Positions 8,799-11,381 of a stretch of DNA of 44,509 bases are shown piece by piece. Both the position numbers and the translations under genes were made by a program. Position 1 is the stretch's first letter. The number at the start of each line of letters is the position of its first letter. The notes under the pieces were generated by a model that saw nothing but the letters and a program-made list of their open reading frames with translations, searched no databases and was not told the origin of the DNA. Source of the DNA: Bacteroidales bacterium (GTDB taxonomy: Bacteria > Bacteroidota > Bacteroidia > Bacteroidales > Bacteroidaceae); assembly GCA_030528715.1 (NCBI GenBank), contig JAUMYJ010000011.1, positions 1-44,509 on the forward strand. The letters are read 5' to 3'.

Positions 8799-9722
8799 TT
8801 ACGCTTTGGTGAGCTCTATACAAGCCCACATACCACTTGCCTCCCAGCCCTCACGACAATAGGTGGTTCGGTGGGTAAGACCTAGGGTTTCGGCTTGTGC
8901 GATGAGGCTAGTAGCATCTTCGGCATAAAAACCGCTCAAAAATAGCGTACCTTCCGCAGCTAAACATTCGGCATAGCGTGGCAGATGTTCGGCCAAGATG
9001 TTGCGATGGATGTTGGCAAAGAGTAGGTCGATGCTTGCAGGGCTAAGGGTGTCTGTTTGCTCAATGCTGCCTAGGCGAATGTCTAGTGGGGCTGTGGTGG
9101 CGTTGAGTGTAGCGTTGATGGCTGTGGCCTCGGTGCTCCAAGGGTCGATGTCGATGGCTATGGCCGAGGCTGCACCGCGTTGTAGGGCATAGAGGGCGAG
9201 TATGCCCGTGCCACAGCCCATGTCAAGCACACGCAGCCCGCGCAGACGTTCGCCCCACGTGAGTATCTGCTGCAATAGCATGGCTGTGGTAGGGTGATCG
9301 CCTAAGCCAAAGCTACAATGGGGCGAGAGTGTGAGGTGCTGACTCCCCTTAGGTAAATGATGAAGTGGGTAGCCATCGGGTACGATGTAGAGTGTTTCTT
9401 GATCGGTAGCGATGGTGTAGGGGACTGTCCATTGCGCTTCCCACGTGGCATTCCAGTTTTGTTGCTCAAAGGGCTGCTCTTCGTAGCTGATGGTAGCGGT
9501 TGGCACGATGTCTGTAGCGTAGCCTATGGCGGCCACGATGCGTTGGTGTAGTGTGCCCTCGTCAAGGTCAGTAGTTGGCAGGTAGGCGTGTAACCCCTTG
9601 GCGGTAGGCTCAAAACTATCAAAGCCCACATCGCCCAAGAGGTTAGGCAAAAGGTCTTGTAAGAGGGGAAACGCATCGGGCATTGCGCTGGCAAAGGTGA
9701 AAACAAAGAGGCGGTAGCTCAT
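8799..9722 (-). CDS. prmA: Ribosomal protein L11 methyltransferase
   Basis: A 307-residue class I SAM-dependent methyltransferase that trimethylates ribosomal protein L11. The SAM-binding motif I is VLDMGCGTGILALYA (about residues 167-181), then IAIDIDPWS, and a catalytic-loop segment LLFANIHRNILAEHL that corresponds to the N-I-L motif of PrmA. The N-terminal substrate-recognition domain includes the PrmA-type EQPFEQQNWNATWEAQW. The reading frame extends to 9773, but the ATG at 9722 (MSYRLFVFTF) is preferred because a TAACTTTG promoter element lies at 9771-9778. Single gene, convergent with the DUF805 gene. Confidence 0.93.
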   Translation of the reverse strand: MSYRLFVFTFASAMPDAFPLLQDLLPNLLGDVGFDSFEPTAKGLHAYLPTTDLDEGTLHQRIVAAIGYATDIVPTATISYEEQPFEQQNWNATWEAQWTVPYTIATDQETLYIVPDGYPLHHLPKGSQHLTLSPHCSFGLGDHPTTAMLLQQILTWGERLRGLRVLDMGCGTGILALYALQRGAASAIAIDIDPWSTEATAINATLNATTAPLDIRLGSIEQTDTLSPASIDLLFANIHRNILAEHLPRYAECLAAEGTLFLSGFYAEDATSLIAQAETLGLTHRTTYCREGWEASGMWACIELTKA

Positions 9723-9778: not shown

Positions 9779-10133
9779 CGCAAAAGATAGGAACTTAGCA
9801 CGCAGCGCAGCACATGTTTTACGCTAGGCCAACGAAACTATCGCAGCGCGTGTGACGTGCGCTTGCAAACAACGAGGTGTGAAAGCCTAGCCCTACATGG
9901 CATGAACAAGGCCGAAATAGCGAATGATGTGCGACGATTATGTGCGTCATCGTGATGACGTAGATAGACCATGCCGATGGCGCACGTGCGCCACCACAAT
10001 GGCGTGGATACACCATCGCGATGACGCATATAATATAGCCTTGTTTCGTGTTTTATGACCTATCTATTAGCGCACGCTTTTTCATATAGCCTTTTTGTAA
10101 TCATATAAGGTGTCAACATACTAAGGTTGAAAA
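9779..10133. other. Intergenic region with palindrome cluster, no gene seen
   Basis: No credible coding frame on either strand; short minus-strand frames here only translate a repeated palindromic element. The stretch at 9943-10028 is dense in inverted and direct repeats (separate entry). The rest is without recognisable signals. Confidence 0.6.
9943..10028. repeat. Palindrome cluster with two 29 bp imperfect direct repeats
   Basis: CGTCATC-GT-GATGACG at 9945-9960 is a 7 bp inverted repeat. TGGCGCACGTGCGCCA at 9978-9993 is a perfect 16 bp palindrome. Outer arms at 9943-9957 and 10014-10028 are inverted copies matching at 14 of 15 positions. Read on the minus strand, 9999-10027 and 9955-9983 are direct repeats (about 23 of 29 identical) at 44 bp spacing. 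Could be a folded RNA, a REP-like element or a protein-binding array. Confidence 0.65.
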
Positions 10134-10163
10134 TTGGTTGTATTATTTTTTTGTTTAAATTTG
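10134..10163 (+). promoter_or_regulatory. Promoter for the broken lipoprotein gene
   Basis: TTG at 10134-10136, 19 bp spacer, TAAATTTG at 10156-10163: a complete Bacteroidota promoter, about 63 bp before the ATG at 10227. Confidence 0.75.
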
Positions 10164-10226: not shown

Positions 10227-10886
10227 ATGAATCTTTCGAACAGATTGATGCATGTGACTATGATTACAGCTGCACTTTTCTTCTTTGCAGGTTGCTCTAG
10301 CGATGTTCAAAGCGAGAAGGAAGCTCCAGAAGTCAATGAAGGTGTACTCAATAAAAAAATCAAGTTCTTCGTAACACGCTAAAGAAAGAAAGCTTAGCAA
10401 TACATGATCTACTTTATCAAACAGAAGCCATACGTGGTGGAGTCTTGGCGGAGGAGATTATAGCCGATGAGGAGCAAAGTAAACTACAAACCGCTCTTTC
10501 AAAAAATAATTCAGCGACAAAAGAGTTGCTGTACGAGTGTGGTTTGACAGAGCCTGAACTTATTGACATTTTAGGCAATGCTAATGATGAGAGACTCGCA
10601 CTTGTGGGGGGGTGTGCTTTCTGAAGTTATTGCCGAAGAGCAGGGTGTACTCACGCGTGACTTAGATTTTAAAGACTACGTGAAATGCGCAGGAGCTGTC
10701 TTAGGTGTTGATGCTTATCTCGAATTACGATCGGCATTATCTGAACCTGGTAAGAAAATCGCTAAGGCCGTACTTAAAGGAGTTGCGACTAATCTTGTAA
10801 AACAAGTGGCCACAAGGCTTTCTGGTTCATTGGGTGTTGCTATAACACTTGCGGAATATGGTACTTGTTTAACTTTTGCTGACTAA
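10227..10886 (+). pseudogene. Lipoprotein gene broken by two frameshifts at homopolymers
   Basis: Translation from the ATG at 10227 gives a lipoprotein signal (ITAALFFFAGCSSD) and stops after 51 codons at 10382. One extra A in the A7 tract at 10353-10359 would continue into a long frame (QVLRNTLKKESLAIHDLLYQ and on), which stops just after the G7 tract at 10606-10612; removing one G there opens the last frame, ending at 10886. The repaired product would be 219 residues: a lipid anchor, a charged helical region, and an amphipathic Gly/Ala/Val-rich C-terminal third (KKIAKAVLKGVATNLVKQVA) that resembles membrane-active peptides. A strong promoter lies upstream and a small membrane protein gene follows by 12 bp. 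It may be phase-variable, decayed, or mis-assembled. Family not recognised. Confidence 0.7.
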
Positions 10887-10898
10887 TAACTAGGCTGT

Positions 10899-11105
10899 AT
10901 GGAATGGTTTCGTGACCTCGTGATGCTGATGTTCTTATCTAAGCCCTTGTGGATTTTTGCTGATAGCATCATGCTTATTTCAAAGCATTTGCGAAATAAT
11001 AGACTGCGCTGTGTTACGCCTTGGCACTTCTATGTGATGCACACCCTCTTCTCTCTTGGGGGCTTAGCCTTTGCGTTTTGGCTCTATCGGCTTTTTACGG
11101 ATTGA
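10899..11105 (+). CDS. Small two-helix membrane protein, unknown function
   Basis: A 68-residue protein with two predicted membrane helices: one near residues 4-28 (LVMLMFLSKPLWIFADSIML) and one near 44-66 (FYVMHTLFSLGGLAFAFWLY), joined by a basic linker KHLRNNRLR. It starts 12 bp after the end of the broken lipoprotein and is likely in the same transcript. Size, topology and position would suit an immunity or accessory protein for the lipoprotein's amphipathic domain, but this is speculation. No known family recognised. Confidence 0.55.
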   Translation: MEWFRDLVMLMFLSKPLWIFADSIMLISKHLRNNRLRCVTPWHFYVMHTLFSLGGLAFAFWLYRLFTD

Positions 11106-11187
11106 GGTTAGAAGCGTTTGCTGCTCCTTTGGTTTTATTGGTTCGATAGAGACTGCGCGTAAGCTATAAGGGTATAATTACGTAAAA

Positions 11188-11234
11188 ACACGCTTCTTTT
11201 GTGGCATTGCACAAATGCTACAAAAGAAGCGTGT
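11188..11234. terminator. Very long hairpin, probable terminator
   Basis: Perfect 15 bp arms at 11188-11202 and 11220-11234 (ACACGCTTCTTTTGT and its complement), extended by a G-T pair and a 5 bp GCATT/AATGC stem to about 21 bp. There is no T-run to its right but an A-run (11184-11188) to its left, so by sequence it would best end minus-strand transcripts. It separates the accessory genes from the sdh operon. Confidence 0.6.
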
Positions 11235-11381
11235 GGTGTTATGGTCTAGGCATCAAAGCCTTGCACACTTTTTGCAGTGGCTGTGCAGGGTGTTATTTGT
11301 AGTTGTTATAAATAAGCGCGAAAAAGTAGTTTTTGTTATTTTTTCGAGCTTTTGCCCATGGAGCTTATCTCTTTTATTTCG

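What the first reader, a model, noticed from the sequence alone, without database searches (positions are those of the whole stretch)
10227..11105. Lipoprotein frameshifted at both an A7 and a G7 tract, followed by a two-helix membrane protein
The first frame stops after 51 codons; one more A in the A7 tract (10353-10359) and one less G in the G7 tract (10606-10612) restore a single 219-residue lipoprotein. Having both breaks exactly on 7-base homopolymers suggests slipped-strand switching, or else sequencing error. The promoter is intact and strong, and the C-terminus looks like a membrane-active amphipathic helix, with a small membrane protein next door that could protect the cell. If the tract lengths vary between cells, this would be an on/off surface or toxin-like system, unusual for Bacteroidales, which usually switch by DNA inversion.
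Basis: partly seen in the sequence, partly recalled or inferred. Interest (0 to 1): 0.72.

Follow-up and report, generated by a model that had tools for sequence, protein, structure and literature searches.

The report
Disarmed bacteriocin-like gene with kept immunity
A bacterial gene that looks like a weapon against rival bacteria is broken here in two places, while the small membrane protein beside it, which probably protects the cell from that weapon, is still intact; the pair belongs to a family found across the Bacteroidota that matched no catalogued family in our searches.

Summary
In detail: a lipoprotein gene runs in three successive frames (10227-10886), changing frame at an A7 and a G7 tract, followed 12 nt later by an intact 68-residue two-helix membrane protein. 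Searched apart, the three pieces are the only 3 of 1350 window pieces matching a profile of intact relatives, in order. The same genome holds an intact paralogue. Across Bacteroidota I found 49 distinct loci: usually a lipoprotein ending in a ~70-residue domain bracketed by two cysteines, then a small membrane protein. The membrane gene is open in 47 of 49, the lipoprotein gene disrupted in 19 of 49 (partly judged by eye). Domain and membrane protein co-vary. The members scanned matched no curated family. Best reading: a bacteriocin-like peptide on a lipoprotein carrier with cognate inner-membrane immunity; the window copy is disarmed, probably immune. Slipped-strand switching at this locus is untested. 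At family level G/C runs of seven or more occur 7 times in 55.8 kb of toxin genes plus upstream DNA, 0 times in 126.6 kb of flanks; five abut a promoter-like -7 box, and two close Algoriphagus species carry different signal-peptide lesions.

The parts
10134..10163 (+). promoter-like site: TTG (10134-10136), 19-nt spacer containing T7 (10146-10152), TAAATTTG (10156-10163)
   Evidence: pattern scan and sequence; the Bacteroidetes consensus is recalled, not from a call
10227..10382 (+). lipoprotein gene, first frame: signal peptide and lipobox (..FFAGC), stops after 51 codons
   Evidence: matches family profile positions 8-38
10353..10359 (+). A7 tract at the first frame change
10361..10624 (+). 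lipoprotein gene, middle frame (87 codons)
   Evidence: matches paralogue L022 and profile positions 86-132
10606..10612 (+). G7 tract at the second frame change; only G/C run of seven or more in the window
10613..10886 (+). lipoprotein gene, third frame up to the stop codon
   Evidence: profile positions 158-223, E 6e-11
10650..10658 (+). Leu-Thr-Arg just before the C-terminal domain (possible protease site; xTR also in L022 and L004)
   Evidence: compare BcpT LTR cleavage in PMC9308784
10659..10883 (+). C-terminal domain with the two family cysteines (codons 10686-10688 and 10866-10868)
   Evidence: alignments A4 and A7
10899..11105 (+). 68-aa two-helix membrane protein, probable immunity protein, open frame
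   Evidence: partner open in 47 of 49 family loci; charge topology
11188..11234 (+). strong hairpin downstream of the pair (11180-11245 folds at -37 kcal/mol, z -8.9), possible bidirectional terminator

Best explanation
The locus is a two-gene interbacterial-competition module of a family not found in the libraries searched. The first gene encodes an exported lipoprotein whose C-terminal ~70 residues (two cysteines about 52 residues apart, a cationic amphipathic then a hydrophobic Gly-rich helix) are the membrane-active part, probably released by proteolysis just before the domain. The second encodes a two-helix inner-membrane protein that protects the producer from that peptide. In this genome the first gene has been inactivated by two frame changes at homopolymers, most likely real mutations, and the partner is still open, so the cell is probably disarmed but immune. 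Shown: homology of all three pieces, the intact paralogue, recurrent pairing, co-variation, recurrent disruption of the lipoprotein gene. Inferred: killing, membrane target, immunity, proteolytic release.
For: Family profile hits in order; intact paralogue with two small TM genes in the same genome. Same gene order in 49 distinct loci, TM gene open in 47. Both cysteines are invariant and two Gly and a Phe nearly so in the 26-row alignment. Net charge of the Cys-Cys core is positive in 37 of 42, median spacing 52. Domain and TM protein similarity correlate (Mantel 0.364, p 2e-4, n 42), also given the rest of the lipoprotein (0.335, p 5e-4, n 26); the rest of the lipoprotein correlates with the TM protein on its own (0.219, p 0.01) but not given the domain (0.095, p 0.15). 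No locus has an intact lipoprotein gene with a broken TM gene (0 of 29); 17 have the reverse (p 0.02 against assumed gene lengths). AxA-like motif before the domain in 18 of 39 against 2.2 expected elsewhere in the same proteins and 6.7 in shuffles (motif chosen after seeing the data). TM hairpin loop more basic than the tails in 24 of 37, equal in 5, less in 8. In the window's genus 7 loci in 6 of 58 genomes: lipoprotein gene intact in 2 of 7, TM gene open in 7 of 7.
Against: No activity is known for any member. Selection to keep the TM gene where the lipoprotein is reduced to a remnant is not clear: G001 against G062, dN/dS 0.50 on 15 changes, against 0.04 for the neighbouring outer-membrane gene; the Algoriphagus toxin body gives 0.74 on only 7 changes. 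TM proteins are so divergent that the window's one aligns with neither paralogue partner, and the locus with the nearest domain also has the nearest TM protein in only 11 of 42. Related sequences can inflate a Mantel test. The AxA motif is absent in 21 of 39, including the window.
Confidence: 0.58

Rival explanations
1. The two tracts (and perhaps the promoter T7) are slipped-strand switches: the assembled sequence is one OFF state of a phase-variable bacteriocin-like lipoprotein.
For: G/C runs of seven or more: 7 in 55.8 kb of toxin gene plus upstream DNA of 49 loci, 0 in 126.6 kb of their flanks (p 2.5e-4). Five of the seven (L053, L054, L081, L043, L008) abut a -7-like box TAnnTTT[GA] with TTG 19-22 nt away (for L043, L053, L054; by eye for L081, L008). 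In four of those five genomes the toxin promoter is the only such site. A. limi has T7 where A. kandeliae has T8, with a frame change, in the signal peptide of an otherwise open gene; A. kandeliae has a stop codon there. Seven of ten loci with point lesions have them in the signal peptide or start region (p 3e-5 if that is 30 of 250 codons; post hoc).
Against: No second isolate or read data for the window. The window tracts (A7, G7) are short, lie in the gene body and are not seen at the like places of the paralogue L022 (by eye); both would have to be right at once. The seven G/C runs are not independent (three in two close Algoriphagus species), the region was defined after the fact, runs of six are 9 inside and 10 outside, and A/T runs of eight or more are not enriched (26 in, 43 out, p 0.13). 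The G8/G9 difference in Algoriphagus is a substitution, not a length change. At least two family lesions are nonsense codons (L053, L062).
Confidence: 0.18
2. Assembly or sequencing error in an intact gene.
For: Both breaks fall on homopolymers; the bacteroidetocin authors treated single-base homopolymer indels in their loci as likely errors (PMC6671954, passages); the genome is a 71%-complete assembly in 42 contigs.
Against: Ten homopolymers of seven or more in eight other window ORFs leave these open, about six of them well inside the gene. Disrupted relatives also occur in named isolate assemblies (L053, L054, L060, L062).
Confidence: 0.15
3. The pair is not a weapon but an envelope module (lipoprotein plus small inner-membrane partner, for example exclusion, stress sensing or adhesion).
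For: No activity data; the first piece gives only sub-threshold hits to small lipoprotein families, EexN among them.
Against: Patchy occurrence (12 of 299 genomes of one family; 6 of 58 in the genus), co-variation strongest with the C-terminal domain, cationic amphipathic core, and frequent loss of the lipoprotein while the partner stays.
Confidence: 0.2
4. Recoding: ribosomal or transcriptional slippage on A7 and G7 yields some full-length protein.
For: Homopolymers of this kind can be slippage substrates (recalled).
Against: Two opposite events would be needed in one message; conservation of the tracts and stimulatory structure were not tested beyond the paralogue, which lacks the tracts (by eye).
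Confidence: 0.04

Closest known systems
Caulobacter CdzC/CdzD with immunity protein CdzI (PMC5380434, passages seen)
   Same: Surface-associated hydrophobic bacteriocin proteins; small transmembrane immunity protein found mostly in the inner membrane; proposed membrane pore.
   Different: CdzC/D are 86- and 84-aa proteins beside type I secretion homologues and carry glycine zippers; here a lipoprotein carrier and two bracketing cysteines. No sequence comparison was made.
BcpT / BcpI of Phocaeicola (PMC9308784, abstract and passages seen)
   Same: Bacteroidota antibacterial protein, activated by cleavage after LTR motifs, small immunity gene just downstream; the window and two relatives have xTR before the domain.
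   Different: BcpT is a 499-residue plasmid-borne protein with a 57-aa lipoprotein as immunity protein; the plasmid collection gave no match to the paralogue L022.
Bacteroidetocins (PMC6671954, passages seen)
   Same: Small cysteine-containing anti-Bacteroidetes peptides.
   Different: Double-glycine leader, ABC peptidase-transporter, thiol oxidoreductase, four cysteines, no immunity protein found; here a lipobox carrier, two cysteines and a TM partner.
Pneumococcal blp 'cheater' strains (PMC4739721, passages seen)
   Same: Non-producers that keep protective immunity genes; a frame shift is the lesion in most of them.
   Different: There the transporter gene is broken; here the toxin gene itself.

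Membership tests
Bacteriocin with cognate membrane immunity protein (general kind) | short cationic, amphipathic or hydrophobic active part | tested here: met
   core charge positive in 37 of 42; amphipathic and hydrophobic stretches
Bacteriocin with cognate membrane immunity protein (general kind) | adjacent small membrane gene co-varying with the toxin | tested here: met
   TM gene open in 47 of 49 loci; Mantel tests
Bacteriocin with cognate membrane immunity protein (general kind) | killing of rivals and protection by the partner | not testable with these tools
   no assay
Bacteroidetocins | double-glycine leader, peptidase-transporter, four cysteines | tested here: not met
   lipobox carrier and two conserved cysteines; I recognise no transporter among the ORFs beside the window copy
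BcpT | sequence similarity to BcpT | tested here: inconclusive
   no plasmid record matches the paralogue L022; presence of the bcpT plasmid in that collection was not checked, and no direct alignment was made
BcpT | cleavage after LTR before the active part | tested here: inconclusive
   xTR present in 3 of 39 (window, L022, L004); cleavage not tested
Cdz glycine-zipper bacteriocins | extended GxxxGxxxG and type I secretion genes | not tested
   no profile at hand; by eye the window domain has no extended zipper
Slipped-strand contingency locus | homopolymer in gene or promoter beyond expectation | tested here: met
   family level only, G/C runs of seven or more; A/T runs not enriched
Slipped-strand contingency locus | tract length varies between isolates and changes expression | tested here: inconclusive
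   T7 against T8 between two Algoriphagus species; not testable for the window
Any curated family | match above the curated cut-off (Pfam, NCBIfam) or a convincing match in PHROGs, PADLOC or PDB sequences | tested here: not met
   window pieces and single relatives, 9 full-length members (NCBIfam, PHROGs, PADLOC: one member at E 0.0097 to ZorB, taken as chance), 26 domain rows (Pfam), PDB (best E 0.24)

The most novel reading that the evidence does not exclude
Bacteroidota carry a phylum-wide class of lipoprotein-borne, cysteine-bracketed membrane peptides with two-helix immunity proteins. Their production is set stochastically by slippage: poly-G runs in the promoter spacer next to the -7 box, and homopolymers in the signal peptide or gene. 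Populations would thus mix armed and disarmed-but-immune cells, and the window copy would be one disarmed state.
Probability: 0.27. Interest if true: 0.85.

Novelty: new variant of a known kind. Interest (0 to 1): 0.62.

Why it matters
If the reading holds, a bacteriocin type matched by no library searched is spread thinly across the Bacteroidota, where to my recall few peptide weapons are described, and the immune-but-disarmed state recurs in it. The named isolates (Algoriphagus, Psychroflexus, Kordia, Cellulophaga, Rufibacter) make both claims testable.

Tried and rejected
DNA search of the locus in 61 relatives: only itself. Search with the middle piece in 58 genomes: only itself. Two genome-contig scans: the window's C-terminal piece found nothing, the A6 subgroup 15 loci. 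Viral contigs with A6: none. Plasmids with L022: none. Empty-site test: in none of 29 sdhC loci of the genus did prmA show within the flank held, at most about 1.5 kb and less in some, so insertion into a conserved site could not be shown. dN/dS of the retained TM gene was not conclusive. Dropped before the counts: the weak hits (L011-L021, E 0.004-0.04) as unrelated, without a separate test of each; L078 (E 3e-4), which the profile did not recover; repeat fetches of the same places; and five duplicates (L024, L039, L040, L048, L049, merged with L053, L064, L051, L052, L062). The Mantel set is 42 of the 46 loci: L009 and L031 (TM broken), and also L034 and L075, whose TM genes are open but which I had listed as absent. 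Lesion classes were set by script and then by eye. The script passed L053 and L054 as lipoproteins through an internal ATG that gives a 12-residue leader; I class them as disrupted because the longer signal peptide upstream is broken. L042 and L063 were passed by eye. L027 (no standard start codon) is left undecided. In L070 and L071 the 'first cysteine' is not the family one. The p-value is not used, because the genomes were chosen partly for having the tract. Eight paper searches listed no paper that I recognised as describing this family; only open-licence PMC text was searched, and most papers were seen as listings only.

Full report
What is there. The window lies in an unnamed 1.64-Mb, 42-contig, 71%-complete genome. 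Its class includes Kordia: genome G1007, listed as same class, has contigs of the same lengths as the named Kordia periserrulae contigs. Between a prmA-like gene and an sdhC-like gene (names by my reading of the ORFs; sdhC agrees with a sub-threshold Pfam hit) lies a lipoprotein gene that starts at 10227, stops after 51 codons, continues in a second frame to 10624 and in a third to 10886, followed 12 nt later by a 68-residue two-helix membrane protein. The A7 and G7 tracts sit where the frames change.

Is it one gene? I searched the pieces apart. Against a profile built from nine intact relatives, 3 of 1350 six-frame pieces of the window score at E <= 1, and they are the three frames, in order. 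The C-terminal piece led to a same-genus relative (G081, 43% identity). A two-sequence profile then found an intact paralogue in the window's own genome: a 199-residue lipoprotein at G000:C15 followed by membrane proteins of 79 and 67 residues. Wider searches, own genome counted where drawn: 12 of 395 genomes of the phylum, 12 of 299 of one family, 6 of 58 of the genus, 8 of 393 of the order, 5 of 72 of the Algoriphagus genus, and 15 loci from genome contigs, most of them named species. After merging duplicates there are 46 distinct loci in the table and three more, 49 in all.

Anatomy of the family. The usual protein has a lipobox (L063 has a type I-like signal peptide instead), a variable middle and a C-terminal domain, roughly C-x5-G, 20-35 residues, a basic stretch, then G-x-[IV]-[GA]-x-A-x4-[ED]-F-xx-C. 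Both cysteines are invariant in the 26-row alignment. The Cys-Cys spacing is 49-64 in 40 of 42 loci (the other two, L070 and L071, are remnants without the first family cysteine) and the core is positively charged in 37 of 42. Just before the domain 18 of 39 have an AxA-like motif, against 2.2 expected elsewhere in the same proteins and 6.7 in shuffles (the motif was defined after looking); three, the window, its paralogue and L004, have xTR instead. The next gene encodes a small membrane protein (median 64.5 residues in 42 loci), usually a hairpin whose loop is more basic than its tails (24 of 37, equal in 5, less in 8, p 0.02). The members scanned reached no curated Pfam or NCBIfam cut-off and no PHROGs family; one had a marginal PADLOC hit. 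No PDB sequence matched convincingly. Library scans covered nine full-length members or 26 domain rows, not all 49 loci.

Why bacteriocin and immunity. The membrane protein co-varies with the C-terminal domain (0.364, p 2e-4, n 42). With the rest of the lipoprotein it co-varies less (0.219, p 0.01, n 26) and not significantly once the domain is accounted for (0.095, p 0.15); the domain effect survives the reverse control (0.335, p 5e-4). Still, the nearest domain and the nearest membrane protein belong to the same partner locus in only 11 of 42. Intact pairs evolve under purifying selection (Psychroflexus dN/dS 0.16 and 0.19, Sediminibacterium 0.25 and 0.22, the last with saturated dS). The lipoprotein gene is disrupted in 19 of 49 loci (seven with a lesion in the signal peptide or start region, three in the body, five without an N-terminal part, four remnants; one more undecided). 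The membrane gene is disrupted in 2 (L009, L031), both beside a disrupted lipoprotein gene; no intact lipoprotein gene lacks an open partner (0 of 29). This asymmetry (17 against 0) has p 0.02 if lesions simply followed assumed gene lengths. In two close species of the window's genus (89% DNA identity) the lipoprotein gene is reduced to its last 42 codons while the 79-residue partner stays open in both. The dN/dS of that partner (0.50, 15 changes) does not prove selection.

Broken, switching or error? Error is less likely: ten other homopolymers of seven or more lie in eight other window ORFs that stay open, about six of them well inside the gene. Simple inactivation is the plainest reading for the window. 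Family-level facts keep switching alive. First, of ten loci with point lesions, seven have them in the signal peptide or start region (L029, L051, L053, L054, L060, L062, L081), leaving about 190-300 codons open (by eye). Algoriphagus kandeliae and A. limi, 98% identical in the toxin body and identical in the partner, carry different lesions there, one a stop codon and one a T7/T8 difference; their toxin bodies differ by too few changes (7, dN/dS 0.74) to tell whether selection has ceased. Second, G/C runs of seven or more occur seven times in 55.8 kb of toxin gene plus upstream DNA and never in 126.6 kb of the same loci's flanks. In 153 kb of other DNA there are three, one of them the window's own G7. 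The seven are not all independent (three are in the Algoriphagus pair), runs of six are 9 inside and 10 outside, and A/T runs of eight or more are not enriched (p 0.13). Five of the seven stand directly before a TAnnTTT[GA] box with TTG 19-22 nt away: L043, L053 and L054 by script, L081 and L008 by eye; consensus recalled. In L043, L053, L054 and L081 the run lies about 25-80 nt before the start; in L008 the N-terminal part is lost. A pattern search of ten chosen genomes found 11 distinct such sites in 35.5 Mb and no match to the reversed pattern. In G562, G1140, G1191 and G1035 the toxin promoter is the only site; G371 has four. One of the sites away from this family, in G1125, stands before another lipoprotein whose C-terminus is a glycine-zipper stretch between two cysteines, followed by a 69-residue two-helix protein (no Pfam match at cut-off). 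That is an independent example of the same arrangement, found without using protein sequence. Against this, the G8/G9 pair in Algoriphagus is a substitution, other sites precede beta-propeller lipoproteins or no gene, the family member of G1125 itself (L083) has no such tract, and of 32 family loci scanned only three show a poly-G spacer.

Comparison with known systems. It works most like surface-borne membrane-active bacteriocins with a small inner-membrane immunity protein, such as Caulobacter Cdz (PMC5380434, passages). It shares cleavage-motif placement with BcpT (PMC9308784, abstract and passages) but not its size or immunity type, and fails the defining features of bacteroidetocins (PMC6671954, passages). 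The disarmed-immune state resembles pneumococcal cheaters (PMC4739721, passages). A catalogue of polymorphic toxins (PMC3482391, passages) lists a two-TM immunity family (Imm17) and a two-helix pore-forming toxin (Tox-WTIP); no Pfam match linked the proteins scanned to either.

Limits. No activity, structure or expression was tested. Eight literature searches covered open-licence papers only.

Noticed in passing
L022:1132-2323 (G000:C15): Intact paralogue of the broken gene in the same genome, followed by two different small membrane proteins (79 and 67 aa): possibly double immunity.
   Followed up: partly
L123, reverse-complement coordinates about 1.58-2.65 kb (G1125:C62, poly-G site 9521-9535): A different 285-aa lipoprotein with a glycine-zipper C-terminus between two cysteines and a 69-aa two-helix protein behind it, under a poly-G promoter-like site: apparently a second class of the same arrangement.
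   Followed up: partly
L115, L122 (G371:C1, 606954 and 610108): Poly-G promoter-like sites upstream of a beta-propeller lipoprotein (L122: TolB_like/DUF5128) and of a small secreted-looking peptide and a further lipoprotein (L115), within 15 kb of the family member L008.
   Followed up: partly
L114:1500-1515 (G000:C5:18392): The only poly-G plus -7-like site found in the window's own genome; it points at no evident plus-strand gene, in the gap beside a long surface-protein-like ORF on the other strand.
   Followed up: partly
L043, G10 run 648 nt before the lipoprotein stop codon: G10 tract fills the promoter-like spacer directly before TAAATTTG, whose end is 15 nt from the start codon; spacer 22 nt.
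   Followed up: partly
L053 and L054, signal-peptide region: Two close Algoriphagus species have different disabling lesions in the same toxin gene and an identical 59-aa partner.
   Followed up: yes
window 11188-11234: Near-perfect hairpin of about 21 bp (-37 kcal/mol for 11180-11245) downstream of the pair, self-matching in the genome search.
   Followed up: partly
window 9930-10035: Short palindromic-looking stretches (cgtcatcgtgatgacg, ggcgcacgtgcgcc) upstream of the promoter; seen by eye only.
   Followed up: no
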